From NCBI GenBank assembly GCA_903842455.1, contig CAIMLX010000210.1:1-39212 (forward strand): DNA of 39,212 nt, given 5' to 3'. Shown one piece after another: positions 1,761 through 22,861 of this stretch. This DNA is from an uncultured Hyphomicrobiales bacterium. Lineage in GTDB: Bacteria; Pseudomonadota; Alphaproteobacteria; Rhizobiales; Devosiaceae. The position numbers were made by a program, and so were the translations under genes. The first letter of the stretch is position 1, and each line of letters opens with the position of its first letter. The notes beneath the pieces are model-generated. The model was given only the letters and a program-made list of their open reading frames with translations, did not search any database and was not told where the DNA came from.

Positions 1761-2786
1761 TCAGGCGCGCCGGGTGCTTTCGCGCAGCACCAGTTCGGCC
1801 CGCAACGTCACGTGCACCGGTTCGTCAGCGGGGATCACACCCTCGATGATGTCGATCAAGGTGTTGGTGGCGAAGCGGCCGATATCCTCGCGCGGCTGGC
1901 GCATGGTGGTGAGGGGCGGGGCGGCAAAAGCGGCGACCGCAATGTCGTCAAAGCCGATCACCGACAGGTCGCGGGGGCATTCGACGCCAGCGAGCCGGAG
2001 CCGGTGAACGACGCCGATCGCCATCTCGTCATTGCCGCAGAAGAGGGCGGTCGGGCGCTCTGACTGCGCCAGCAGGTGCTCACCGGCTGCAATGCCGGTG
2101 CCGAGGCTATGGTCACCCTGCATCATCCACTCGGGGCGGATCGGCAGACCTGCCTCTTGCATTGCCTGCTCGAAACCGATCCGCCGCTCATGCAGCGACT
2201 TGTTGCGCGAGGGGCTCATCAGATGGCCGATGCGGGTGTGTCCAAGTTCGATCAGGTGGCGCGTGGCCCGGGCCGCAGCGGCGCGATTGTCGACCAGCAC
2301 GGAGTTGACGCGGGGATCGGGGATTTCGTCGTAGGCAGCGACCAACGGCAGGTTCGGGCCTTCCTCGTCACTGCCGTTGATGCCGAACGTATCGAGCGAG
2401 CCGTCGAACAGCAGCAGCCCGTCGGCGCGGTTCGAATGCAGGTAATCGGCCAGCCAGCGGTTGGGATCCTGGCCGAGGCGGGTAGCGACGAGAACGGAGT
2501 AACCGCGTTCCGATGCCGCGCGGATCACCCCATCGAGCACCGTTGAATAGTAGGGATTGCCGATGTTCGGCGCGGCCATCAGAATCGTCCGGGCGTTGCG
2601 CAGACGCAGCGAGCGGGCAGCCTGATTGATGGTGTAGCCGGTGGCGCTGACAGCGGCCTGAACGCGCTCACGGGTGGTTTTGGACACGCGGTCGGGGCTC
2701 GACAGCACCCGGCTCACGGTGGCTGCCGAGACATTTGCCTGGCGGGCAACGTCCTGAATAGTTGGTGTTTTTCGGATCGGAACCAT
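1761..2786 (-). CDS. LacI-family transcriptional regulator of the sugar locus
   Basis: A 341-residue LacI/GalR-type regulator. The N-terminal helix-turn-helix (about 9-30, IQDVARQANVSAATVSRVL) is followed by the hinge helix, whose Leu60 in AARSL is the usual minor-groove wedge. A periplasmic-binding-protein-like sensor domain runs from about 66 to 335 and ends in the usual FDD...PPLTT segments. The ATG at 2786 was chosen because it lies three residues before the HTH and has an AGGGAG ribosome site upstream. A much longer open frame extends upstream but crosses the operator region and the opposite-strand transport gene, so it is not credible. The gene is divergent from the transport operon, whose promoter region carries two palindromes of LacI type. 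It probably represses that operon and itself, with the imported sugar or a metabolite as inducer. Confidence 0.92.
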   Translation of the reverse strand: MVPIRKTPTIQDVARQANVSAATVSRVLSSPDRVSKTTRERVQAAVSATGYTINQAARSLRLRNARTILMAAPNIGNPYYSTVLDGVIRAASERGYSVLVATRLGQDPNRWLADYLHSNRADGLLLFDGSLDTFGINGSDEEGPNLPLVAAYDEIPDPRVNSVLVDNRAAAARATRHLIELGHTRIGHLMSPSRNKSLHERRIGFEQAMQEAGLPIRPEWMMQGDHSLGTGIAAGEHLLAQSERPTALFCGNDEMAIGVVHRLRLAGVECPRDLSVIGFDDIAVAAFAAPPLTTMRQPREDIGRFATNTLIDIIEGVIPADEPVHVTLRAELVLRESTRRA

Positions 2787-2869: not shown

Positions 2870-2883
2870 TGCAATCGATTGCA
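2870..2883. promoter_or_regulatory. LacI-type operator O1 (14-bp perfect palindrome)
   Basis: TGCAATCGATTGCA is a perfect palindrome with the central CG typical of LacI-family operators. It lies directly upstream of the predicted -35 of the transport operon, and its centre is 35 bp from the second operator. The regulator gene is divergent, so this is most likely its binding site. Confidence 0.75.
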
Positions 2884-2912
2884 TTGGACTTTCGTTCAAG
2901 TTCGTGTAATCG
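2884..2912 (+). promoter_or_regulatory. Predicted sigma70-type promoter of the sugar operon
   Basis: TTGGAC at 2884-2889 and TAATCG at 2907-2912 are separated by exactly 17 bases. The -35 abuts operator O1 and the -10 lies inside operator O2, so a regulator bound at either site would block RNA polymerase. This implies a leader of roughly 100 bases before the binding-protein gene. The prediction is by eye. Confidence 0.5.
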
Positions 2913-2920
2913 ATTACACG
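2903..2920. promoter_or_regulatory. LacI-type operator O2 (18-bp perfect palindrome)
   Basis: CGTGTAATCGATTACACG is an 18-bp perfect palindrome. It shares the AATCGATT core with O1 and contains the predicted -10 of the transport operon. The 35-bp centre-to-centre distance puts the two operators about 3.3 helical turns apart, compatible with cooperative binding. Confidence 0.8.
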
Positions 2921-3023: not shown

Positions 3024-4274
3024 ATGAAGCTTATTATGTCGGCAACGGCCTTGCTGGCCGCTGCCCTGCTTGGCGGCACGTCCGTACGCGCCGCTGATGT
3101 TGAAGTCGTTCACTGGTGGACGTCGGGTGGCGAGCAGGCGGCTGTGTCCGTGTTCGCCAACGAGTTCGATGCCACCGGCGACAAGTGGATCGACGGCGCC
3201 ATCGCGCTGGGCGAGACCGCTCGTGCCACCGTCATGCAGCGCGCCCTCGGCGGCGATCCGCCGGACGCTTCGCAGTTCAACCCGGGCCGTCAGTACGAAG
3301 AACTGATCGCCGCCGGGCTGCTGCTCGACCTGACCCCGCTCGCCGAGAGTGAAGGCTGGGCCGACTTCGTCCGCCCCGCACAGATCGCCGAGCCTTGCCT
3401 GATCGACGGCAAGTGGTGGTGTGTTCCGGTGAACATCCACATGCAGAACTGGGCCTGGGCGTCGGTCGCGGCGTTCCAGAAGGCCGGACTTGAAGTTCCG
3501 ACCACCTGGGACGACTACCTGGGCGCTCTGCCCAAGCTGCAGGAAGCGGGCGTCATCCCGTTCGCCGTCGGCGGTGACGGTGGTGGCTGGCAGATTTCGC
3601 TGCTCGCCAACCAGCTCATCCTCGCCCAGCTGGGTGCGGAGACTGTCGAGAAGATCTGGAAAGACAAGGATCTCGAACTCGCTGGCGGGGCTGACGTGCT
3701 CAAGGCCTTCCAGACGCTGAAGGGTCTGGGTGAGTATGCCGACGATGGTTCGCCGAACCGCTCGTGGGCCGACACCACCTCGCTGGTCATCCAGGGCGAA
3801 GCTGCCCTGCAGGTGATGGGTGACTGGGCTCAGGGTGAATTCCAGGTTGCCGGCCAGAAGCCGGGCGTCGACTACGCCTGTCTCCTCGGGCCGCTGGTTG
3901 CCGAGCCGAAGTATGTCCGCACCGGTGGCGACATCTTCGTGTTCTTCAAGCAGAACGATCCGGAAGTCGAGCGCGCCCAGCTTTCGCTGGCCTCGCTGAT
4001 GGTGAACCCGCGCACCCAGGCGCTGTTCAACACCGCCAAGGGTTCGGCTCCGATCCGTGACGACGTCGACATGTCGCTCGCCAATGACTGCATGAAGGCA
4101 GCCATCGACGTGCTGAAGCAGGACGGCTCGGTTGTTCCCGATGCCAACCAGTGGCGCAACGAGGCCTTTACGACGGCCCAGAACGCCATCTTCTCGGACC
4201 TGATCTACAACGACGCGACCACTCCGGAAGCGGCCCAGGCGCAGTTCGTCGAACTGCTGCGGAACGCCGAGTAA
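3024..4274 (+). CDS. CUT1 sugar ABC transporter, substrate-binding protein
   Basis: A 416-residue periplasmic binding protein of the extracellular solute-binding family 1. A Sec signal peptide (about 1-23, cleavage near VRA|AD) precedes VEVVHWWTSGGE, a start typical of glucose/mannose-type CUT1 binders. Other recognisable segments are GDPPDASQFNPGRQYEEL and GDWAQGEF. The ATG follows a clear GGGAGG site. It is first in the operon and is followed by two permeases and an ATPase. A strong hairpin just after the stop probably protects its mRNA, so that binding protein is made in excess over the membrane parts. The ligand cannot be read from sequence; the family binds mono- and disaccharides. Confidence 0.93.
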   Translation: MKLIMSATALLAAALLGGTSVRAADVEVVHWWTSGGEQAAVSVFANEFDATGDKWIDGAIALGETARATVMQRALGGDPPDASQFNPGRQYEELIAAGLLLDLTPLAESEGWADFVRPAQIAEPCLIDGKWWCVPVNIHMQNWAWASVAAFQKAGLEVPTTWDDYLGALPKLQEAGVIPFAVGGDGGGWQISLLANQLILAQLGAETVEKIWKDKDLELAGGADVLKAFQTLKGLGEYADDGSPNRSWADTTSLVIQGEAALQVMGDWAQGEFQVAGQKPGVDYACLLGPLVAEPKYVRTGGDIFVFFKQNDPEVERAQLSLASLMVNPRTQALFNTAKGSAPIRDDVDMSLANDCMKAAIDVLKQDGSVVPDANQWRNEAFTTAQNAIFSDLIYNDATTPEAAQAQFVELLRNAE

Positions 4275-4288
4275 ACTGACACGATCTG

Positions 4289-4321
4289 GCGGCGGTCCGG
4301 TGCTCAGAGCCGGGCCGCCGC
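4289..4321 (+). promoter_or_regulatory. Intercistronic mRNA hairpin after the binding-protein gene
   Basis: A 12-bp stem (GCGGCGGTCCGG with CCGGGCCGCCGC, one U-G pair) closes a 9-base loop. No T-tract follows, so it is more likely a 3'-end stabiliser or partial attenuator than a full terminator. This is a common arrangement between a binding-protein gene and its permease genes. Confidence 0.6.
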
Positions 4322-4357
4322 TCTGATCCTGGCCATCGATGCGGGGATGGAGCACGA

Positions 4358-5308
4358 GTGACCACCTTAACTGCGACTGAACAAGGGCTCGCAGATCGCG
4401 AGCTCAAAGCGAGGGCCAGACGTCGGCGCCTCATGGGCAAGCTGCCTGCCATCATCGGCACCCTGCCAATGATGATCGTAGCCATCGGCGTGTTCGTCAT
4501 CGGCATCGCCTTCACGGTGGTCCTGTCGTTCACCAACACCAAGTTCTTCCTCATCAACATCGACTTCGTCGGGATGCGTCAGTACGACATCCTGTGGTCG
4601 ACGCCGCGCTGGCTCCAGTCGGTCGCCAATATCTGGCTGTACGGCTTCGGTCACATCGGGCTTTGCGTCGTCCTGGGCTTCCTGCTCGCGGTGGCGATGG
4701 ACCAGCGCATTCGCGGCGAAGATACCTTCCGCACCATTTTCCTCTATCCGTTCGCGCTGTCGGCAGTAATCACCGGTCTGGTCTGGCAGCTTATGCTCGA
4801 TCCGATCTGGGGCCTGCAGGCCTATGTGCGCAGCCTCGGCTTCGCCGACTTCACCTTTGCGCCGCTCGCCAATGGCAGCACCGCGCTCTACGGCATGATC
4901 ATCGCCTCGACCTGGAACGGCGTGGGCGTCACCATGGCGATCCTGCTCGCCGGTCTGCGGGGGGTCGATGAAGAGATCTGGAAGGCCGCCAAGATCGACG
5001 GCATCCCGACCTGGCGCACCTATATCTCCATCGTCATCCCGATGATGCGCGGCGCTACCGCCACGGCGCTGGTGCTGCTGGTCGTCAACACCGTGCGCAC
5101 CTTCGACATTGTCATCGCCATGACCGGCGGCGGCCCCGGTATCTCGACGCAGATGCCCGCCACCTACGTCATCGACAGCATCAATGCGCGCAACGTGGCA
5201 CAGGGTACGGCTGGCGCGACCGTCATGCTGCTCCCAATCGCCGCATTGATCCTGCTGCAGGCATTCTTCCGTTGGCGCGCTGCGCGCATCAAAGCGAGGG
5301 CAGTATGA
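4358..5308 (+). CDS. CUT1 sugar ABC transporter permease 1 (MalF-like)
   Basis: A 316-residue inner-membrane permease. A basic N-terminal tail (17-28) leads into six or more hydrophobic segments. The cytoplasmic EAA loop, which docks on the ATPase, is visible at about 206-228 (EEIWKAAKIDGIPTWRTY). The start is GTG, preceded by a GGGATGGAG site; no in-frame ATG fits better. The stop codon overlaps the next gene's ATG in ATGA, which indicates translational coupling. It forms the translocation pore with the next permease. Confidence 0.93.
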   Translation: MTTLTATEQGLADRELKARARRRRLMGKLPAIIGTLPMMIVAIGVFVIGIAFTVVLSFTNTKFFLINIDFVGMRQYDILWSTPRWLQSVANIWLYGFGHIGLCVVLGFLLAVAMDQRIRGEDTFRTIFLYPFALSAVITGLVWQLMLDPIWGLQAYVRSLGFADFTFAPLANGSTALYGMIIASTWNGVGVTMAILLAGLRGVDEEIWKAAKIDGIPTWRTYISIVIPMMRGATATALVLLVVNTVRTFDIVIAMTGGGPGISTQMPATYVIDSINARNVAQGTAGATVMLLPIAALILLQAFFRWRAARIKARAV

Positions 5309-6225
5309 GCGCCGCCACCACAACGTACGGCGTCGAGCCATCGGGTCCGAAGCCCCGGCGCGTGACGCCGGCTCGCATCGGCATCTACGCCTTTCTCATC
5401 GTCGCGGCGATCTTCTTCCTGATCCCGCTGGCGGTGATGATCCTCACCTCGATGAAGCCCATGGACGAGATTCGCGGCGGCAACATCTTCGCCCTGCCGC
5501 TGAATCCGACGCTCGACTACTGGGTGAAGGCGTGGAGTTCGGCCTGTACCGGCCGCGACTGCAATGGCCTCGCTCCGGGCTTCTTCAACTCGATGAAGAT
5601 CACCCTGCTGGCGGTGCCGATCTCGATCATCCTGTCGATGCTCAACGGCTATGCGCTCAGCTTCTGGCGCTTCCGCGGTTCGGAGCTGATGTTCGGCCTC
5701 CTGGTATTCGGCGCCTTCGTGCCGTTCCAGGTGCTGGTCTACCCCATCATTTTCGCGCTGAGCAGCGTCAAGCTGCCGTGGGGTGGTACGCTGTTCGGCA
5801 CGCTGCCGGGCATCGTCATCGTGCATTCGATCTTCGGCATGCCGATCCTCACGCTGCTGTTCCGCAACTTCTTCGCCTCGCTGCCCGGCGAATTGTTCAA
5901 GGCGGCGCGCGTCGATGGAGCAGGGTTCTGGCGCATCTTCTTTTCGGTGATGCTGCCGATGTCGGTTCCAATCACCATCGTGGCCGTCATCCTGCAGGTC
6001 ACCGGCATCTGGAACGACTTCATCTTCGGCCTGGTGTTTGCCGGCCGTGAGAACCTGCCGATGACGGTGCAGCTCAACAACATCGTGCGCACCTCGACCG
6101 GTACGGTCGAGTACAGCACCAACATGGCGGCGACGATCCTCACGGGTGCCGTGCCGCTGATCGTCTACTTTGTTTCCGGCAAGTGGTTCGTCCGCGGTAT
6201 TGCTGCCGGCGCCGTGAAAGGCTGA
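5305..6225 (+). CDS. CUT1 sugar ABC transporter permease 2 (MalG-like)
   Basis: A 306-residue inner-membrane permease. The ATG at 5305 overlaps the previous stop codon (ATGA), which fixes the start; the frame is open further upstream but only inside the preceding gene. Six membrane segments are visible. The EAA loop lies at about 193-218 (LPGELFKAARVDGAGFWR). A cysteine-containing periplasmic loop (81-86, CTGRDC) near the first helix is a small oddity that is also seen in some glucose-type transporters. It pairs with permease 1 and the ATPase that starts 2 bp downstream. Confidence 0.93.
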   Translation: MSAATTTYGVEPSGPKPRRVTPARIGIYAFLIVAAIFFLIPLAVMILTSMKPMDEIRGGNIFALPLNPTLDYWVKAWSSACTGRDCNGLAPGFFNSMKITLLAVPISIILSMLNGYALSFWRFRGSELMFGLLVFGAFVPFQVLVYPIIFALSSVKLPWGGTLFGTLPGIVIVHSIFGMPILTLLFRNFFASLPGELFKAARVDGAGFWRIFFSVMLPMSVPITIVAVILQVTGIWNDFIFGLVFAGRENLPMTVQLNNIVRTSTGTVEYSTNMAATILTGAVPLIVYFVSGKWFVRGIAAGAVKG

Positions 6226-6227
6226 GA

Positions 6228-7301
<1,074 letters not shown>

Positions 7302-7371
7302 ACCAATTGTCGTGGCCGGACGTGTGGAGGCGCGTCCGCCTGCGGTGTAAAAGCCCATCCCAATCGGAACT

Positions 7372-7402
7372 CACCCGCCCGGGGAATCCCCCGGCGCGGG
7401 TG
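7372..7402 (+). promoter_or_regulatory. Intercistronic hairpin between transport and enzyme genes
   Basis: A 13-bp stem (CACCCGC/GCGGGTG, then CCGGGG/CCCCGG, with one bulged C) closes an AATC loop. It lies in the 124-bp gap between the ATPase gene and the first enzyme gene. With no long T-run it probably acts as an mRNA processing or stability element, or as partial attenuation separating transport from catabolism. Confidence 0.55.
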
Positions 7403-7425
7403 CTTTACCGGAAAGAGGCAGTCCA

Positions 7426-8175
7426 ATGGATTTTTCGTTTCAGCTCTACAGCGCCCGCAATTTTCCGCCGCTCGACAGCGTTCTCGGCCGGCTCAGCCAT
7501 TTCGGCTACAAGCAGGTCGAGGGCTTCGGCGGGCTCTACGCCGAGCCCGATGTCCTCGCCGCCGCGCTCGAGAAATACGGGCTGACCATGCCCACCGGGC
7601 ATTTCGGCCTGGCTCAGTTGCTCGATACCGACACGGCGCTGAAGACTGCCGAGACGCTCGGCATCAAGTACCTCTACTGCCCGGCGATCCCCAAGGAAGA
7701 GCGGCTGAACCAGCCCGAATCCAAGTGGGTGGAGCTCGGCGAGACGCTGGCAAAGCTCGGTGAAGCGTTCCGCAAGCGCGGCTTCGGCTTTGGCTGGCAC
7801 AACCACGATTTCGAGTTCCAGCCGCTGCCAAACGGCAAGCTGCCGATGGATATCCTGCTCTCGACCGCCGCCCACAACGAGTGGGAAATGGACGTCGCCT
7901 GGGTGGTGAAGGGCGGGCAGGACCCGCTGACCTGGATCAAGAAGTACGGCGCTCGCATCAACGCCGTGCACGTCAAGGATATTGCACCGGCTGGCGAGAA
8001 CGCCAACGAGGATGGCTGGGCCGATGTCGGCCACGGTACGCTCGACTGGCAGGCGCTGCATGACGCCATCAAGACCGGCACCAATGCCCACTATTGGGTG
8101 ATGGAGCACGACAATCCTGCCGACGTCGACCGCTTCGCCAGCCGCTCGCTGGCTGCGGTCAACGGCTGGAAGTAA
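7426..8175 (+). CDS. Sugar phosphate isomerase/epimerase-family TIM-barrel enzyme, copy 1
   Basis: A 249-residue protein of the xylose-isomerase-like TIM-barrel (AP endonuclease 2) superfamily, cytoplasmic. The strand-end metal-site motifs are visible: HNHDFEF (125-131), MDVAW (155-159), HVKDI (182-186), VGHGTLDW (201-208) and MEHDN (226-230). The superfamily includes sugar isomerases, epimerases and the lyases that perform beta-elimination or hydration on 3-keto sugars. It is clearly paralogous to the next gene, with the same length and motif order. The ATG follows AAGAGG. Its place after an ABC importer and before a Gfo/Idh/MocA dehydrogenase points to catabolism of the imported sugar. The exact reaction is unknown. 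Confidence 0.88.
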   Translation: MDFSFQLYSARNFPPLDSVLGRLSHFGYKQVEGFGGLYAEPDVLAAALEKYGLTMPTGHFGLAQLLDTDTALKTAETLGIKYLYCPAIPKEERLNQPESKWVELGETLAKLGEAFRKRGFGFGWHNHDFEFQPLPNGKLPMDILLSTAAHNEWEMDVAWVVKGGQDPLTWIKKYGARINAVHVKDIAPAGENANEDGWADVGHGTLDWQALHDAIKTGTNAHYWVMEHDNPADVDRFASRSLAAVNGWK

Positions 8176-8208
8176 ACGGGCCTCGAACTCACTCGGAGGA
8201 GAACTCAC

Positions 8209-8958
8209 ATGGATATCGGTTTCCAGCTCTACAGCGCCCGGAACTACCCTCTGGCCGACGTGCTGAAGAAGGTCGCGGCGCTCGGCTACACCCAGGTCGA
8301 GGGCTACGGCGCGCTCTACGCCAACCCCGATCCGGCGGCGCTGAAGGCGCTGCTCGACCAGAACGGCCTCACCATGCCGACCGCCCACATCTCGCTCGGC
8401 GATCTCGAGGATACGGGCAAGACGCTGAAGCTCGCCGAGACGCTGGGCATCAAGGTGGTGGTCTGCCCGTGGCTGGCCCCGCACGAGCGCCCGCTGTCGG
8501 CCAGTGGCTGGCAGAAGTTCGGCGAAAAGCTGCAGAGGATCGGCAAGCCGTTCCAGGATGCCGGCCTCGGCTTCGGCTACCACAACCACGACTTCGAGTT
8601 CGTCAGCTATGGCGGCCGCTTCGGCATGGACTACCTGCTGGAGGCCGCTCCGGCCGTCGCCTGCGAGGCGGACGTTGCGTGGATCGTCCGCGGCGGCGCC
8701 GACCCGGCCGCGTGGCTCGAAGCCAATGGCGACCGCATCATCGCCGTGCACGTGAAGGACATTGCCCCCGCCGGCACCGCCGATGACGAGGGCGGCTGGG
8801 CCGATGCCGGCCACGGCACGATCGACTGGAAGTCGCTCTGGCCGATCATCCGCAACAAGACCCGGGCCGGCTACTTCATCGCCGAGCACGACAACCCCAA
8901 CGATATCGATCGCTTCGCGTCGCGCGCGATCGCCACCATCAAAGCCCTCGGAGCCTGA
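8209..8958 (+). CDS. Sugar phosphate isomerase/epimerase-family TIM-barrel enzyme, copy 2
   Basis: A 249-residue paralogue of the preceding gene. Shared blocks include FQLYSARN (5-12), QVEGYG (29-34), HNHDFEFV (125-132), HVKDIAPAG (181-189), GHGTIDW (201-207) and AEHDNP (225-230). The presumed metal ligands are kept in both copies, but the region after the active-site loop (85-105) and the 131-150 segment differ. That suggests two related but distinct steps rather than simple redundancy. The ribosome site GGAGGAGAA is strong. The next gene begins 2 bp after the stop, so the two are cotranscribed. In known pathways, pairs of such enzymes catalyse successive elimination and hydration of 3-keto intermediates; that role here is an inference. 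Confidence 0.88.
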   Translation: MDIGFQLYSARNYPLADVLKKVAALGYTQVEGYGALYANPDPAALKALLDQNGLTMPTAHISLGDLEDTGKTLKLAETLGIKVVVCPWLAPHERPLSASGWQKFGEKLQRIGKPFQDAGLGFGYHNHDFEFVSYGGRFGMDYLLEAAPAVACEADVAWIVRGGADPAAWLEANGDRIIAVHVKDIAPAGTADDEGGWADAGHGTIDWKSLWPIIRNKTRAGYFIAEHDNPNDIDRFASRAIATIKALGA

Positions 8959-8960
8959 TC

Positions 8961-10100
8961 ATGGCAAAAGTCTATGGCGTCGGCATCATGGGTGCCGGCA
9001 ATATCTCGGCCGCGTACCTGCGTCTCGCGCCGCTGTTCAAGAACCTCGAAGTCCGCGCCGTCGCCGACGTGATTCCGGAGGCCGCGAAGAAGCGCGCCTC
9101 CGAATATAACGTCGCGGCGCAGACCCCCGACGAGCTGCTGAAGAACTCCGAGCTCGACGTGATCGTGAACCTCACGGTTCCGGCCGCGCATTTCTCGGTG
9201 AGCAAGGACATTCTGTCCGCCGGCAAGCATGCCTATTCCGAGAAGCCGTTCGTGCTGTCGGTGGAAGAGGGCATCCAGCTCAAGGCGCTGGCCGAAGAGC
9301 ATGGCCTCAAGGTCGGCTCCGCCCCGGATACGTTCCTCGGCGGCGCGCACCAGCAGGCGCGCAGCATCATCGAGTCCGGCCAGCTCGGGCGTATCGCGTC
9401 GGGCACCATGCATGTGATGAGCCGAGGCATGGAGCACTGGCATCCCAATCCGGACTTCTTCTTCCAGCCCGGCGGCGGCCCGATCCTCGATCTGGGCCCG
9501 TACTACGTCACCGACCTGATCAATCTCGCCGGCCCGATCAAGCGCGTCTCTGCCTTCACCAGCATGGCCCGCGCCGAGCGCGAGGTGACCGCCGAAGGTC
9601 CGTTCAAGGGCACCTTCATCAAGGTGGGCACGCCGACGACCATCCACGCTATCCTCGAGCTGCACTCGGGCGCCATCATCACGCTTGGCACCAGCTGGGA
9701 TGTGTCGAGCCATGGCCACCACAATATCGAGCTCTACGGCACCGAAGGCTCGGTCTATGTGCCCGATCCGAACTTCTTCAACGGCGACGTGACGATCACC
9801 GATCGCGCCGGCACCAAGGAGAAGGTGACCCCGTGGGATCACCCGTTCGGCGTCGCCAACCAGGATCTCGACAAGCCGAACCCGCGCGCCAACTACCGCA
9901 ATGCCGGCCTGTCCGACATGCTGACCGCGGCCGAGACCGGCCGCCATGCCCGCTGCGATCTCGATGTGGCGCTGCACGCGGTCGACGTCATGACCTCGAT
10001 CCTCAAGGCCGGCGAGACCGGCCAGGTGATCACGCTTTCCACCACCTGCGAGCGTCCGGCGCCGCTGGGCCCGGACGAAGCCCGCGCCATGCTCCGCTGA
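8961..10100 (+). CDS. Gfo/Idh/MocA-family NAD(P)-dependent sugar oxidoreductase
   Basis: A 379-residue cytoplasmic dehydrogenase. The N-terminal Rossmann fold shows GIMGAGNIS (8-16). The family's catalytic EKP motif is at 94-96, with Lys95 as the expected proton relay. The C-terminal alpha/beta domain has GGGPILDLGPYYV (171-183), where Asp177 and Tyr181 occupy the usual active-site positions. Members oxidise or reduce a sugar hydroxyl, often at C3, with NAD(P). It is the last gene of the operon, directly followed by a strong terminator. With the two TIM-barrel enzymes it suggests oxidation, rearrangement and perhaps re-reduction of the imported sugar. Confidence 0.92.
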   Translation: MAKVYGVGIMGAGNISAAYLRLAPLFKNLEVRAVADVIPEAAKKRASEYNVAAQTPDELLKNSELDVIVNLTVPAAHFSVSKDILSAGKHAYSEKPFVLSVEEGIQLKALAEEHGLKVGSAPDTFLGGAHQQARSIIESGQLGRIASGTMHVMSRGMEHWHPNPDFFFQPGGGPILDLGPYYVTDLINLAGPIKRVSAFTSMARAEREVTAEGPFKGTFIKVGTPTTIHAILELHSGAIITLGTSWDVSSHGHHNIELYGTEGSVYVPDPNFFNGDVTITDRAGTKEKVTPWDHPFGVANQDLDKPNPRANYRNAGLSDMLTAAETGRHARCDLDVALHAVDVMTSILKAGETGQVITLSTTCERPAPLGPDEARAMLR

Positions 10101-15137: not shown

Positions 15138-16367
15138 GTGAAATCTCTGGACATTGCAATTGCCGGCGCCGGGCCGGGCGGACTTGCAGCCGCCCTGCTG
15201 CTCAGCCGCGCCGGTCACCGCGTGCGTATCCTTGAGCGCTTCGACCAGCCGCAGCCGGTAGGGTCCGGCCTGATGCTGCAGCCCACCGGGCTCGCTGTCC
15301 TGCACGCGCTCGGACTGTATCGGTCAATCGCGCGGCTGGGCGCCCCCATCGACCGGCTGATCGGCACTGACGTCCACTCCGGACGCACGGTGCTCGAGGT
15401 CGGCTACCAGCCGCTCGGGGCCGGACAGCACGCCCTCGGTGTGCACCGCGCCGCGCTTTTTCGCGTGCTGCATGATGCGGTGGTCGAGGCAAAGCTGCCG
15501 ATCCGCAGTGGTTACACCGTCGACCAGCTCCAGCGCGACCTGGGCAAGAGCTGGCTGCTGTCGCCGCAGGGGCTCGAGGGGCCATTCGACCTGGTAGTCG
15601 ATGCGCTCGGCGCGCACTCGGCGCTGAAGCCGTTTGCCCGGTCGCAGGGCCGGGCACGGCCGCTGGTGTACGGCGCCCTCTGGCGGACCACCCCCTGGAC
15701 CGATGCCGGCTTCGACCGCCAGGCGCTAACTCAACGCTATCGCGGTTCGAGCGTGATGATCGGGGTGATGCCGATCGGGCGGGCCGAGCCGAACGGCTCC
15801 GAACTGGCAGCTTTTTTCTGGAGCCTCAAGCCCGCCGAGTACGCGGCCGTGCAGCAGCTTGGTTTCGCAGCGTGGCGCCAGTCGGTGCAGGCCTACTGGC
15901 CGGCGACAGCCCCGCATCTCGACGCGCTAGGCGGCTTCGAGCGTCTGACGCTGGCGCGCTACCAGCACCACACGCTGCCAGTTCCGGCTGGCGAGGGGAT
16001 CGCCTTCATCGGCGACAGCGCCCATTCGACCAGTCCGCAACTGGGGCAGGGGGCAAACATGGCGCTGCTCGACGCCGCGGCGCTGACGGCGGCTGTAGAC
16101 ATAGCCGACAGTGTTGACGAGGCGCTGGAACGATACGCGGCGATGCGGCGCTGGCATGTGCGGCTCTACCAGGCGCTATCGCTGACACTGACGCCCTTTT
16201 ACCAGTCCGACAGCGCTGTCATGCCGATCCTGCGTGACCTGCTGGTCGGCAGCTTCGCGCGCGTCCCAGCCATCCGCCGGATGCTCGCCAGTATGGTGTC
16301 GGGGCAGTTGTTGAGTCCGCTCAAGGCAATCGGACTCGAACCTGCACCATCAGGTGAAGTGCGATGA
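15138..16367 (+). CDS. FAD-dependent monooxygenase (PHBH/UbiH fold)
   Basis: A 409-residue flavoprotein of the p-hydroxybenzoate-hydroxylase fold. The dinucleotide-binding motif GAGPGG is at 10-15 with the acidic Glu33 at the end of strand 2. The DG-like motif is at 151-161 (DLVVDALGAHS) and the GD motif GDSAHSTSPQLGQGAN at 292-307. These enzymes hydroxylate or oxidise aromatic, terpenoid or quinone substrates with NAD(P)H and O2. The start is GTG with a GGGACGG site. Its stop overlaps the ATG of the next gene, so the two are translationally coupled and probably act together. The substrate is unknown. Confidence 0.88.
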   Translation: MKSLDIAIAGAGPGGLAAALLLSRAGHRVRILERFDQPQPVGSGLMLQPTGLAVLHALGLYRSIARLGAPIDRLIGTDVHSGRTVLEVGYQPLGAGQHALGVHRAALFRVLHDAVVEAKLPIRSGYTVDQLQRDLGKSWLLSPQGLEGPFDLVVDALGAHSALKPFARSQGRARPLVYGALWRTTPWTDAGFDRQALTQRYRGSSVMIGVMPIGRAEPNGSELAAFFWSLKPAEYAAVQQLGFAAWRQSVQAYWPATAPHLDALGGFERLTLARYQHHTLPVPAGEGIAFIGDSAHSTSPQLGQGANMALLDAAALTAAVDIADSVDEALERYAAMRRWHVRLYQALSLTLTPFYQSDSAVMPILRDLLVGSFARVPAIRRMLASMVSGQLLSPLKAIGLEPAPSGEVR

Positions 16368-18013
16368 GCGTTCATATACTCATCGTCGGGGCCGGCGGCG
16401 TGTTCGGTTCGCGGCTGGCACGCCTGCTGGCGCGGCGAGGCGGCTACCGCCTGAGCCTCGGTGGGCGGACAGAGTCGCGGGTGCTCCCGTTGCAGCGGGA
16501 GTTGCGCGTCGCGCATCCCGATGGCGAGTTCGCGCATGTGCATATCGATCGTGATCAGGCGAGCCCGGAGCGCCTGAAGGAAATCGGCTGCGCCATCGTC
16601 GTCGACTGTTCCGGGCCGTTCCAGGTGTCGGGCACCAGGCTGGTCGAGGCGGCTATCGGGGCACGGGTCCACTATCTCGACCTCGCCGACTCCCGCGCCT
16701 TTGTCGGCGGCATCGGCCGCTTCGACAGCGCGGCGCGCGCGGTGGGGATTGCGGTGTTTTCGGGTGCAAGCTCGACGCCTGCGCTGACCCACGCCGTGCT
16801 CGACAGCATCACCAGCGCCTGGCTCAGCGTCGACAGCGTCGACGTCGCCATCGTCCCCGGCAACCGCGTCCCGAAGGGCAAGGCGGTGATCGACGGGATA
16901 CTGAGCTGGGTTGGGCAGAGGGTACAGGTTTTCCGCGATGCCACCTGGCAGGAAGGGCGCGGCTGGACCGATCCCCGCCGGGTCGTCATCGAGGGGCTGC
17001 GGCCGCGCCGCGTCTACCTGGCCGACGTGCCCGACCTCGACCTGCTGTATCGCCGCTACCAGCCGCGTATCCGCGCCGGCTTCGATGCCGGTATGGAACT
17101 GGGGCTGCTCAACCGGCTCATCGGGATGGCCGGCTTGCTCGTGCGCTGGCGTGTCTTGAAGTCGGCTCGCGCTTTCTCGGGGCTGGGAGCCTGGGTCGCC
17201 GGCCGGCTCGACCGCTTCGGTTCGGCCGATGGCGGTATGCTGGTCGAGGCGGCGGGGCAGGATGCGCGCGGTGATACCCGCGTCGCGCGCTGGACGCTGA
17301 AGGCAGGGCACGGGGACGGCCCCTACGTGCCGGCAGTCCCCGCCGCGGCTCTCGTCGAAGCATTGGCGGCGGGCCGCGGGATTCGCGCCGGGGCCCGTCC
17401 GGCTTCCGGTGAACTGACGCTCGAGCAGATTCGCCCGTGGTTCGAGGGGCTCGACATCGAACACAAGCTGCTGTCGTACCGGGGCGAGAAGCCGCTCTAC
17501 CGCCGTATCATGGGCGACGCCTTCGACCGTCTGCCGGAAGTCACCCGCCGCCTCCACCGCGGCCGTCCCGCCGTCATCGCGATCGGGGAGGCCGACGTGA
17601 CACCGGCTGCCAGCGCGCTGGGCCGGTTGCTGGCTCGGATCTTCGGCCTGCCGGGCACGGCCGGCAAGCAGCCGGTCCGTGTGGTCATCGAAAGTCGCGA
17701 CGGCCGCGAGCACTGGACCCGGTTCTTCGGCAACCGCCCGATGCGGTCGCTGATGAGCGCCGCTCCCAACAATCTGATCGAGGAGCGCTTCGGTCCGTTC
17801 AGCCTGCGCATGCGGCTGGTACCCAAGCCCGGCGGCCTCGACATGGAGCGGGTCTCCGGCCGCCTGTTCGGCGTGCCGTTGCCCGGCTTCCTGCTACCGC
17901 GGGTTCGGGCGACCGAACGGGTCGACGACTATCGCCGCCACGCCTTCGACGTCGAGATCACCGCACCGCTGGCGGGACGGCTCGTGGCCTACAAGGGCTG
18001 GCTGGAGGTCTAG
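16364..18013 (+). CDS. Saccharopine-dehydrogenase-like NAD(P) domain fused to DUF4166
   Basis: A 549-residue two-domain protein. The N-terminal Rossmann domain has GAGGVFGSRLARLL (9-22), as in saccharopine-dehydrogenase-like reductases. From about residue 367 to the end it matches the DUF4166 layout (YRRIMGDAFDRLP, then an IESRDGREHWTRFFG stretch and an EERFGPFSLRMRL stretch). Functions of DUF4166 fusions are not established. The ATG lies in an ATGA overlap with the FAD monooxygenase stop, which indicates coupled synthesis and a shared pathway. An oxidoreductase acting on a lipid or isoprenoid product of the partner enzyme is possible, but nothing in the sequence proves it. Confidence 0.82.
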   Translation: MSVHILIVGAGGVFGSRLARLLARRGGYRLSLGGRTESRVLPLQRELRVAHPDGEFAHVHIDRDQASPERLKEIGCAIVVDCSGPFQVSGTRLVEAAIGARVHYLDLADSRAFVGGIGRFDSAARAVGIAVFSGASSTPALTHAVLDSITSAWLSVDSVDVAIVPGNRVPKGKAVIDGILSWVGQRVQVFRDATWQEGRGWTDPRRVVIEGLRPRRVYLADVPDLDLLYRRYQPRIRAGFDAGMELGLLNRLIGMAGLLVRWRVLKSARAFSGLGAWVAGRLDRFGSADGGMLVEAAGQDARGDTRVARWTLKAGHGDGPYVPAVPAAALVEALAAGRGIRAGARPASGELTLEQIRPWFEGLDIEHKLLSYRGEKPLYRRIMGDAFDRLPEVTRRLHRGRPAVIAIGEADVTPAASALGRLLARIFGLPGTAGKQPVRVVIESRDGREHWTRFFGNRPMRSLMSAAPNNLIEERFGPFSLRMRLVPKPGGLDMERVSGRLFGVPLPGFLLPRVRATERVDDYRRHAFDVEITAPLAGRLVAYKGWLEV

Positions 18014-21898: not shown

Positions 21899-22861
21899 AT
21901 GCCATTCTTCGACCTGCCGCAAGACAAGCTTGTCAGCTATCGCTCGAGCACCCCCGCTCCCGCCGATTTCGACGCCTTCTGGCAGGCGACGCTTGGCGAG
22001 GCGCGCCAGCATCCGCTCGACGCCGTGTTTGAGCCGCTCGACTACGGGCTCGATGCCTTCGACATCTTCGATGTGACGTTCTCCGGCTTCGGCGGTCACC
22101 GGATCAAGGGCTGGTATATCAAGCCGGCTGGCCGTGAACCCTCGGGCACGGTGGTGAAGTATATCGGCTATGGCGGCGGTCGCGGCTTCCCGCATGAGCA
22201 TCTGCTGTGGCCGGCAACCGGCCGCGCGGTGTTCGTCATGGATACGCGCGGGCAGGGCAGCAGCTGGTCGGTCAGCGACACGGCGGACCCGATCGGCTCC
22301 GATCCGGCGCATCCGGGCTTCATGACGCGCGGCATCACCGACAAGTCGTCCTACTACTACCGGCGTGTCTACACCGATGGCGTGCGCGCCATCGAGGCGG
22401 TCCTTACCCGGCCCGAGACCAATCCCGACAAGGTCGCGGTGGTCGGCGGCAGCCAGGGTGGGGGTATCGCCATCGCCGTGGCCGGGCTCGAGCCCAAGGT
22501 GAAGGCCGCCATGCCGGACGTGCCGTTCCTCAGCGATTTCCGTCGCGCCATCGGCCTCACCACCCGCGACCCCTACAGCGAAGTCGTCCGCTACCTGACG
22601 GTCCATCGCAGCGGCGCCGAGAAGATTTACGAGACACTGAACTATTTCGACGGCATCCACTTCGCGGCCCGCGCGAAGATGCCGGGCCTGTTCTCGGCCG
22701 GCCTGATGGATGACGTCTGCCCGCCGTCGACGGTTTACGCATCGTTCAACGCCTGGGGCGGCGACAAGGAGATCGAGGTCTACACCTTCAACAACCACGA
22801 GGGCGGCGGGGTCTTCCAGGACCGCGCGCAGGTGGTCTGGCTGAAGAAGGTGCTCGGCTGA
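21899..22861 (+). CDS. Acetylxylan esterase / cephalosporin-C deacetylase family hydrolase (CE7)
   Basis: A 320-residue alpha/beta hydrolase of carbohydrate esterase family 7. The conserved RGQ is in DTRGQGSS (115-122). The nucleophile is Ser185 in GGSQGGG, the acid Asp271 in LMDDVCPPST, and the base His300 in NNHEGG. Length and spacing match the family closely. CE7 enzymes remove acetyl groups from small acetylated xylo-oligosaccharides or cephalosporins and act in the cytoplasm; no signal peptide is present. The ribosome site is weak. It ends 12 bp from a convergent MFS gene. No xylanase is in the window, so a role in xylan use is only suggested. Confidence 0.92.
   Translation: MPFFDLPQDKLVSYRSSTPAPADFDAFWQATLGEARQHPLDAVFEPLDYGLDAFDIFDVTFSGFGGHRIKGWYIKPAGREPSGTVVKYIGYGGGRGFPHEHLLWPATGRAVFVMDTRGQGSSWSVSDTADPIGSDPAHPGFMTRGITDKSSYYYRRVYTDGVRAIEAVLTRPETNPDKVAVVGGSQGGGIAIAVAGLEPKVKAAMPDVPFLSDFRRAIGLTTRDPYSEVVRYLTVHRSGAEKIYETLNYFDGIHFAARAKMPGLFSAGLMDDVCPPSTVYASFNAWGGDKEIEVYTFNNHEGGGVFQDRAQVVWLKKVLG

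What the first reader, a model, noticed from the sequence alone, without database searches (positions are those of the whole stretch)
3024..10100. LacI-controlled importer plus twin TIM-barrel enzymes and a Gfo/Idh/MocA dehydrogenase: candidate 3-keto-sugar pathway
Seen: one operon holds a CUT1 importer, two paralogous 249-residue TIM-barrel proteins with conserved HNHDFEF and HVKD motifs, and a Gfo/Idh/MocA enzyme. Known: levoglucosan catabolism (LgdA, LgdB1, LgdB2, LgdC) uses a Gfo/Idh/MocA-type dehydrogenase with two such TIM-barrel proteins for elimination and hydration, then a reductase. Inference: this operon breaks an anhydrosugar or glycoside by C3 oxidation. Only one dehydrogenase is present, so either it does both redox steps or the reductase is elsewhere. 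There is no glycoside hydrolase or kinase in the operon, which fits a non-hydrolytic route.
Basis: partly seen in the sequence, partly recalled or inferred. Interest (0 to 1): 0.72.

Follow-up and report, generated by a model that had tools for sequence, protein, structure and literature searches.

The report
Import-and-eliminate operon for sugar glycosides
A Devosia-type bacterium appears to import sugar-linked molecules and break the sugar bond without hydrolysis, by oxidising the sugar and then eliminating its partner with twin enzymes, while the last two enzymes of the route sit elsewhere in its genome.

Summary
The operon is real: divergent lacI, two palindromic putative operators, binding protein, two permeases, ATPase, twin 249-aa TIM barrels, Gfo/Idh/MocA dehydrogenase. 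Both barrels keep every named metal-site and catalytic residue of AtOGE, the characterised 3-keto-O-glucoside beta-eliminase; a tree makes them a Devosia-lineage duplication, not an LgdB1/LgdB2 pair. Hydration and final reduction are best assigned to separate genes: an ortholog of the crystallised 2-hydroxy-3-keto-glucal hydratase (AtHYD) and a second Gfo, adjacent on another contig. In 101 of 136 Devosiaceae genomes that hydratase lies 1.2-3.6 kb downstream of the barrel. In 241 Alphaproteobacteria-class genomes, 10 of 11 with the barrel have the hydratase, against 14 of 230 without. Against: three twin-bearing Devosiaceae genomes show no hydratase hit. Levoglucosan and inositol readings fail curated models. 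A beta-glucoside or disaccharide is the likeliest substrate (8 of 12 glucose contacts of a glucose-binding protein kept). Barrel 2 has an altered pocket. New variant of a known kind; nothing has been assayed; the dehydrogenase's role and the substrate are inferred.

The parts
1761..2786 (-). lacI-family repressor, 341 aa, divergent
   Evidence: Pfam LacI 6.9e-17, Peripla_BP_3 8.6e-40; start placed by me at the ATG read as CAT at 2784-2786 (sequence)
2870..2883 (.). putative LacI-type operator 1, TGCAATCGATTGCA
   Evidence: 14-bp palindrome; motif TGNAATCGATTNCA in 12 of 13 loci with a lacI ortholog hit and 2 of the other 67
2905..2918 (.). putative LacI-type operator 2, TGTAATCGATTACA
   Evidence: 14-bp palindrome, 35 bp from the first
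3024..4274 (+). sugar-binding protein (SBP); signal peptide by eye
   Evidence: SBP_bac_1; best solved relative 5dvf, 235 bits; 8 of 12 glucose contacts kept
4358..5308 (+). ABC permease 1
   Evidence: BPD_transp_1 2.9e-13
5305..6225 (+). ABC permease 2
   Evidence: BPD_transp_1 1.3e-15
6228..7301 (+). MalK/UgpC-type ATPase
   Evidence: ABC_tran, OB_MalK, TOBE_2; UgpC subfamily over cut-off
7426..8175 (+). TIM1: proposed 3-keto-glycoside 1,2-eliminase, family-type pocket
   Evidence: AtOGE 8bvk 115 bits; AtOGE metal and catalytic residues all match; model pLDDT 97.5; Foldseek top 8 are 3-keto-beta-glucopyranoside 1,2-lyases, one unnamed barrel and AtOGE
8209..8958 (+). TIM2: paralogous proposed eliminase with altered pocket
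   Evidence: AtOGE 155 bits; W124Y in 9 of 9 TIM2 sequences compared, with other changes beside metal ligands
8961..10100 (+). GFO: proposed NAD-dependent glycoside 3-dehydrogenase
   Evidence: GFO_IDH_MocA domains; profile's best solved relatives DgpA1 105 bits and DgpA 94 bits; present beside the barrel in 76 of 80 loci

Best explanation
A LacI-controlled uptake and oxidative-elimination operon for O-glycosides, most likely beta-glucosides or beta-linked disaccharides. The importer brings the intact glycoside into the cytoplasm (inferred). GFO oxidises its C3 hydroxyl with NAD+ (inferred). A metal, probably Mn2+, held by H125, D156, H182 and E227 of the TIM barrels polarises the C3 ketone; H127 takes the C2 proton and the aglycone leaves, giving 2-hydroxy-3-keto-glucal (inferred from complete site identity with AtOGE). 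The AtHYD ortholog on contig C105 adds water to give 3-keto-glucose and the neighbouring second Gfo reduces it to glucose (inferred from orthology), so the route would be NAD-neutral and need no hydrolase. TIM1 and TIM2 are duplicated eliminases; TIM2's changed pocket suggests a second range of substrates.
For: Best solved relative of both barrels is AtOGE; E39, H66, H132, N133, H134, E161, D163, H189, E233 of AtOGE all match in TIM1 and TIM2 and are kept in 116-119 of 119 family members. Foldseek on the TIM1 model ranks 3-keto-beta-glucopyranoside-1,2-lyases AL1/BT1 and AtOGE in the top 8. The own genome has an AtHYD ortholog, 574 bits to 8ro4, with a second Gfo directly behind it. HYD is within the fetched flanks of 24 of 80 loci and RED of 20; of the 56 loci without it 50 were tested and 48 genomes carry HYD elsewhere, one only as fragments. 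Class sample: 10 of 11 genomes with TIM have HYD vs 14 of 230 without, p = 1.4e-10. Devosiaceae: 113 of 121 TIM genomes have HYD vs 5 of 15 without TIM, p = 2.3e-7; HYD lies 1.2-3.6 kb downstream on the same strand in 101 of 111 compared. The SBP keeps W35, W36, E41, Q90, W250, W270, D303, K339 of the glucose site.
Against: No member of this family has been assayed. GFO resembles no characterised C3-dehydrogenase closely (105 bits with a profile), has Tyr181 where DgpA has a His, and Foldseek does not single out a function. In the class sample only 8 of the 11 TIM genomes pass the GFO cut-off of 1e-70. In this genome HYD and RED are unlinked to the operon, and no copy of the operator (2 mismatches allowed) lies in the 20 kb around them. 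TIM without a HYD hit: G045 of the class sample, L003 and L062 of the 50 tested, and 8 of 121 Devosiaceae, three of them tandem-twin genomes (G375, G382, G385); G382 is given as 100% complete. In G382 and G385 the twins lie 1.6-2.6 kb from the contig end they point to, so a linked hydratase could be cut off there, which I could not test. 38 of 80 loci carry a GH2 beta-mannosidase homologue and 26 a GH43 gene, so in other taxa hydrolysis also serves this importer. Counts are not corrected for phylogeny beyond the family spread (9 of 10 families), and G010 is a weak TIM match (2.5e-43).
Confidence: 0.7

Rival explanations
1. Levoglucosan-type pathway: GFO oxidises an anhydrosugar, one twin eliminates and the other hydrates (LgdB1/LgdB2), the reductase being elsewhere.
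For: Same kinds of parts (LacI, ABC importer, Gfo enzymes, two PF01261 proteins) as in the B. smithii lgd locus, and LgdB2 is reported as partly bifunctional there (PMC7676230, sections 4 part 1 and 10). Three tandem-twin Devosiaceae genomes show no separate hydratase hit.
Against: GFO 41.3 bits vs a 650-bit cut-off for levoglucosan dehydrogenase NF052479; twins are 53% identical paralogues with the same site; the barrel profile gives AtHYD only 23.9 bits but AtOGE 223.6; a separate AtHYD ortholog exists in this genome and lies close downstream in 7 of 15 tandem-twin genomes; 79 of the 80 loci show one barrel.
Confidence: 0.08
2. An inositol-like (IolG/IolE) dehydrogenase/dehydratase pair: GFO oxidises a cyclitol or free sugar and the barrels eliminate water rather than an aglycone.
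For: IolE and IolG are the best NCBIfam hits of the barrels and of GFO; same class of chemistry (beta-elimination next to a ketone).
Against: Scores far below cut-off (47.9 and 58.7 of 290; 61.8 of 355); AtOGE beats IolE in sequence (223.6 vs 37.9 bits) and in the Foldseek ranking; the close tie to a 2-hydroxy-3-keto-glucal hydratase ortholog would be unexplained.
Confidence: 0.08
3. The barrels are eliminases, but GFO is not the entry dehydrogenase: C3 oxidation is done elsewhere (for example by the single GMC flavoprotein of the genome, as GlycDH does in A. tumefaciens) and GFO reduces a ketone.
For: A. tumefaciens uses a flavin GlycDH for step 1 and a Gfo for step 4 (PMC10628242 passages); GFO lacks the usual active-site His; one GMC protein is present; 3 of 11 TIM genomes in the class sample lack GFO at the cut-off used.
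Against: Loci with RED already hold that second Gfo besides GFO; the only GMC match sits on a 3.3-kb contig beside what looks by eye like a short-chain dehydrogenase; GFO is beside the barrel in 76 of 80 loci.
Confidence: 0.1

Closest known systems
A. tumefaciens glycoside pathway GlycDH-AtOGE-AtHYD-Gfo (PMC10628242; structures 8bvk, 8ro4)
   Same: Eliminase metal site and catalytic His; dedicated AtHYD-type hydratase; a Gfo reductase candidate; net conversion to glucose predicted.
   Different: No GMC flavoprotein in the operon, an NAD-type Gfo in its place; own LacI, putative operators and ABC importer; eliminase only 30% (TIM1) and 36% (TIM2) identical to AtOGE and duplicated; hydratase and reductase on another contig here.
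B. smithii levoglucosan locus lgdA-lgdB1-lgdB2-lgdC (PMC7676230)
   Same: LacI, ABC importer, Gfo enzymes and PF01261 proteins; oxidation-elimination-hydration-reduction logic.
   Different: GFO is not an LgdA equivalog; the twins are one enzyme type duplicated, not two dissimilar ones.
3-keto-beta-glucopyranoside-1,2-lyases AL1 (Alistipes) and BT1 (B. thetaiotaomicron), 8tcd, 8tcr, 8tct; seen as PDB titles only
   Same: Among the best Foldseek matches of TIM1, 20-22% identity.
   Different: Sequence match weaker than AtOGE; partner enzymes of that pathway were not compared.
C-glycoside pathway DgpA/DgpBC
   Same: DgpA1 and DgpA are the best solved relatives of the GFO profile; related Mn barrel.
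   Different: CGEs have Glu where AtOGE has His132 (PMC10628242 section 8); the twins have His. GFO has Tyr where DgpA has His.

Membership tests
AtOGE-type O-glycoside beta-eliminase | Metal site His132/Asp163/His189/Glu233 and catalytic His134 | tested here: met
   All present in TIM1 and TIM2 at aligned positions; residues named in PMC10628242 section 8
AtOGE-type O-glycoside beta-eliminase | Cleaves 3-keto-beta-O-glucosides | not testable with these tools
   Needs an assay
A. tumefaciens-type four-enzyme glycoside pathway | 2-hydroxy-3-keto-glucal hydratase (AtHYD) ortholog | tested here: met
   G000:C105, 574 bits to 8ro4; not in the operon itself
A. tumefaciens-type four-enzyme glycoside pathway | Flavin (GMC) GlycDH encoded in the locus | tested here: not met
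   One PF05199 match in the genome, on contig C127
A. tumefaciens-type four-enzyme glycoside pathway | Second Gfo acting as 3-keto-glucose reductase | tested here: inconclusive
   Gfo directly behind HYD in the own genome, 83% identical to the L004 one, whose best solved relative 3v5n is named only Oxidoreductase
Levoglucosan pathway (Lgd) | Levoglucosan dehydrogenase equivalog NF052479 (cut-off 650) | tested here: not met
   GFO 41.3 bits; the other Gfo proteins of the genome were not run against this model, except that the L004 relative of RED scores 121.8
Levoglucosan pathway (Lgd) | Two dissimilar PF01261 proteins, eliminase and hydratase | tested here: not met
   Twins 53% identical, a lineage-level duplication; direct comparison with LgdB1/B2 sequences not done
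Inositol catabolism IolE/IolG | TIGR04379 (290) and TIGR04380 (355) cut-offs | tested here: not met
   47.9 and 58.7, and 61.8 bits
C-glycoside eliminase (CGE) | Glu in place of AtOGE His132 | tested here: not met
   His at this position in 119 of 119 family members
CUT1 sugar importer | SBP, two permeases, MalK-type ATPase with OB and TOBE domains | tested here: met
P. putida-type glucose-binding protein | Twelve glucose-contact residues | tested here: inconclusive
   8 of 12 kept; K92 and N301 changed; G68 and H379 changed or not alignable, depending on the alignment

The most novel reading that the evidence does not exclude
TIM1 and TIM2 are a division-of-labour pair of eliminases that accept 3-keto-glycosides of different configuration (for example gluco and manno, or alpha and beta). 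Because elimination erases the C1 and C2 centres, all would converge on one 2-hydroxy-3-keto-glucal and leave as glucose: an epimerising, hydrolase-free funnel that turns several glycosides into one sugar. They may work as a hetero-oligomer. The beta-mannosidase homologue that accompanies the single barrel in 38 of 80 relatives would then be the hydrolytic alternative to the second barrel.
Probability: 0.18. Interest if true: 0.7.

Novelty: new variant of a known kind. Interest (0 to 1): 0.5.

Why it matters
It extends the recently found non-hydrolytic glycoside route to a conserved family of importer operons in Hyphomicrobiales and Rhodobacterales whose genes, where annotated, are called only sugar phosphate isomerase/epimerase and Gfo/Idh/MocA oxidoreductase. 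It gives those labels a testable reaction, a predicted regulator-operator pair, and a natural pair of paralogous eliminases in which a handful of pocket changes can be tied to substrate range. It also shows that the hydratase-reductase module can be detached from the eliminase operon.

Tried and rejected
Considered and rejected: levoglucosan pathway, inositol pathway, GMC-led oxidation (see rivals). Foldseek with the GFO model gave no functional discrimination: inositol, levoglucosan, DgpA and unnamed Gfo structures score alike. A link of the operon with xylose genes was checked because HYD-RED adjoins xylA-xylB in Azospirillum and lies near xylF/xylB in Roseinatronobacter; no xylA or xylB match passed the thresholds used in the 80 loci. 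The operator was sought near HYD at C105 and not found; a genome-wide scan for it was not run. Sigma-70 and terminator scans were uninformative (1 promoter-like site, mean 1.2 in shuffles; 2 terminator-like, mean 4.2). KijD10, a C3-ketoreductase that I recall uses Lys and Tyr, would bear on GFO Tyr181, but no paper on it was listed, so it is recollection only. That 5dvf is the P. putida CSV86 glucose-binding protein is recalled; the 12 residues listed in PMC7927077 all match its chain at a constant offset of 2. The Angewandte 2024 paper on AtHYD and the Nature 2024 paper on gut 3-keto lyases are recalled; two DOI forms tried for the first were not held, the second was not looked up.

Rows dropped or missing from counts: G013 (31% identity, E 2.1e-42) from the HYD count; six of 56 loci (L009, L012, L041, L059, L061, L069); G303 and G356, whose matches stand low in the list, from the distance count; the match list is cut, so 15 tandem pairs is a lower bound. 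The nine TIM1/TIM2 pairs are the window, L003 and seven Devosia loci, not all independent. The tree warns that AtOGE and L069 are long branches; the twin clade does not rest on them.

Papers, what was seen: PMC10628242 outline, passages, sections 8, 9, 14; PMC7676230 outline, section 4 part 1 of 2, section 10; PMC10066097, PMC9007349 and PMC7927077 passages only; all others listings only.


Full report
WHAT IS THERE. The window lies in a 4.56-Mb, 280-contig genome (G000:C210); the closest of the 80 named loci is a Devosia metagenome genome (83% in the barrel). The operon is as described: SBP, two permeases, ATPase, twin barrels and a Gfo/Idh/MocA dehydrogenase on the + strand with gaps of -4 to +124 bp, and lacI divergent. 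The 237-bp gap between lacI (my start) and the SBP gene holds two 14-bp palindromes, TGCAATCGATTGCA (2870-2883) and TGTAATCGATTACA (2905-2918); with one mismatch allowed the window has these two and no other, against 0.04 expected. The core TGNAATCGATTNCA is in 15 of 127 fetched loci; among the 80 loci it is in 12 of the 13 with a lacI ortholog hit and in 2 of the other 67, some of which are cut short. I read this as the footprint of a conserved regulator-operator pair.

THE BARRELS ARE ELIMINASES OF THE AtOGE TYPE. The best solved relative of both is 8bvk (TIM1 115 bits, TIM2 155 bits; next about 50), and a 52-row profile gives it 223.6 bits against 107 for the next, 37.9 for the better IolE entry and 23.9 for AtHYD. 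8bvk is AtOGE, the A. tumefaciens enzyme that cleaves 3-keto-O-beta-glucosides to aglycone and 2-hydroxy-3-keto-glucal (PMC10628242, abstract and sections 8, 9, 14). The paper names His132, Asp163, His189 and, weakly, Glu233 as metal ligands, His132, His66, Glu39 and Glu161 in a shifted site, and His134 as catalytic; all are identical in both twins and kept in 116-119 of 119 family members. A model of TIM1 (pLDDT 97.5) has in its top 8 Foldseek matches the 3-keto-beta-glucopyranoside-1,2-lyases AL1 and BT1, an unnamed structural-genomics barrel (3obe), and AtOGE (TM 0.87 on AtOGE chain B). Overall identity to AtOGE is only 30% (TIM1) and 36% (TIM2).

THE TWINS ARE A DUPLICATION, NOT LgdB1 PLUS LgdB2. 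In an 84-row tree TIM2 with its L003 ortholog is sister to TIM1 plus the single-copy Devosia genes, and these six rows form a supported clade (99/84). Of the 80 loci only L003 shows two barrels. In 136 Devosiaceae genomes the barrel family is in 121; 15 of the 119 whose positions were used have a tandem pair, a lower bound because the match list is cut. In nine pairs compared, TIM1 keeps the family's residues at most of these positions, while TIM2 has changes next to metal ligands: W124Y in 9 of 9, P140A in 7, F60V and W153V in 6 (window TIM2: Y, G, I, C). AtOGE has Tyr, Ala, Val and Ser there. The metal site is intact in both, so I read TIM2 as an active eliminase with a shifted pocket.

THE MISSING STEPS ARE ELSEWHERE. 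Within their fetched flanks 24 of the 80 loci carry a roughly 351-aa PF01261 protein and 20 a second Gfo. The first has as best solved relative 8ro4, 2-hydroxy-3-keto-glucal hydratase AtHYD of A. tumefaciens (532 bits for the L078 copy; title). The own genome has both, adjacent, on contig C105; its hydratase scores 574 bits to 8ro4. Of the 56 loci without a linked hydratase 50 were tested, and 48 genomes have one elsewhere, one of them only as fragments; the two misses are metagenome genomes L003 and L062. In a class-wide draw of 241 genomes the barrel is in 11 (one, G010, weak) and the hydratase in 24 after dropping G013 at 31% identity: 10 of 11 against 14 of 230, Fisher p = 1.4e-10, or 9 of 10 without the own genome, p = 1.2e-9; 9 of 10 families agree. 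In Devosiaceae it is 113 of 121 against 5 of 15 (p = 2.3e-7), counting a few broken or split hydratase hits. Positions were compared for 111 genomes with both: in 101 the hydratase lies 1.2-3.6 kb downstream on the same strand, mostly 1.3 kb, room for GFO; in 29 of 29 fetched Devosiaceae loci other than the window GFO is next to the barrel. Seven of the 15 tandem-twin genomes have the hydratase 1.3-3.6 kb downstream, so twin barrels and a separate hydratase coexist at one place; this is the strongest argument against calling one twin the hydratase. Five more, the own genome included, have it elsewhere. The remaining three (G375, G382, G385) show no hit, which speaks for the rival; in G382 and G385 the twins lie 1.6-2.6 kb from the contig end they point to, so it may be cut off (coordinates; not tested). 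In the own genome no copy of the operator within 2 mismatches is found in the 20 kb around the hydratase, so that pair is probably under other control.

THE DEHYDROGENASE AND THE SUBSTRATE. GFO passes no equivalog model: inositol dehydrogenase 61.8 of 355 bits, levoglucosan dehydrogenase 41.3 of 650. A 43-row profile ranks the C-glycoside pathway enzymes DgpA1 and DgpA first among solved structures, but only at 105 and 94 bits, and the fold search does not discriminate. It keeps Lys95 of an EKP motif but has an invariant Tyr181 where DgpA has His. In the class sample 8 of 11 barrel genomes pass the GFO cut-off of 1e-70. Its role as C3-dehydrogenase is therefore an inference from genetic constancy (76 of 80 loci) and from the other Gfo that accompanies HYD. 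The SBP's best solved relative is 5dvf, which I know as the P. putida CSV86 glucose-binding protein; of twelve glucose contacts listed in PMC7927077 (passage) eight are kept, in 69-71 of 71 orthologs; K92 and N301 are changed, and G68 and H379 are changed or not alignable. This fits a glucosyl unit in an altered pocket. Relatives add a GH2 beta-mannosidase homologue (38 of 80; the L043 copy has 499 bits to a solved one), a GH43 gene (26) or an aldo-keto reductase (41); GH2 and linked HYD avoid each other (4 loci with both, p = 2.6e-4). So there are two operon styles: eliminase-dehydrogenase-hydratase-reductase, to which Devosia belongs, and a hydrolase-bearing style whose genomes mostly keep the hydratase elsewhere.

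MECHANISM. Shown by computation: gene content, complete eliminase site, duplication, hydratase and reductase-type orthologs in the genome, co-inheritance, palindromes. Inferred: import of an intact glycoside, C3 oxidation by GFO, metal-assisted C2 deprotonation by H127 and loss of the aglycone, hydration and reduction to glucose, NAD-neutral overall. Not known: the glycoside, the preferred anomer, the cofactor, whether the twins form hetero-oligomers.

KNOWN OR NEW. The chemistry is known from A. tumefaciens and B. smithii (papers above) and from gut bacteria (PDB titles). What differs is the importer-coupled operon with its own LacI and putative operators, a Gfo instead of a flavoprotein, a distant eliminase clade, and a duplicated eliminase. 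My paper searches showed no paper on this operon, but most returned only the top of long lists and key papers are not held, so I make no claim of priority. Verdict: new variant of a known kind, interest 0.5.

Noticed in passing
L016, L018, L019 and 35 other loci, between ATPase and TIM: A GH2 beta-mannosidase homologue sits inside the same importer operon in 38 of 80 relatives, often with a GH43 gene and an aldo-keto reductase downstream, and rarely with the hydratase (4 loci).
   Followed up: partly
L097:8004-13070 (Azospirillum plasmid p3) and L095: The hydratase-reductase pair is followed by xylA-xylB in Azospirillum and lies near xylF/xylB in Roseinatronobacter, hinting that the module may also serve xylosides.
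   Followed up: partly
L093:859-1968 (G000:C37): The own genome has a second member of the GFO family (453 bits) with no barrel of this family beside it; its neighbours were only read by eye.
   Followed up: no
window 21899-22858: Acetyl xylan esterase (AXE1, 376 bits) about 12 kb downstream, beside an MFS transporter; a possible plant-polysaccharide link.
   Followed up: no
Devosiaceae genomes, for example G338:C1:928958-929689: A second, more distant barrel match (E about 1e-76) recurs at a separate place in several Devosiaceae; in G344 and G345 it carries an in-frame TAG.
   Followed up: no
window 16364-18010: A protein with a saccharopine-dehydrogenase-type NAD-binding domain and DUF4166, directly behind an ORF that looks by eye like a FAD monooxygenase.
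   Followed up: no
G375, G382, G385: Three tandem-twin Devosiaceae genomes without a hydratase hit; contig ends may explain two of them.
   Followed up: no
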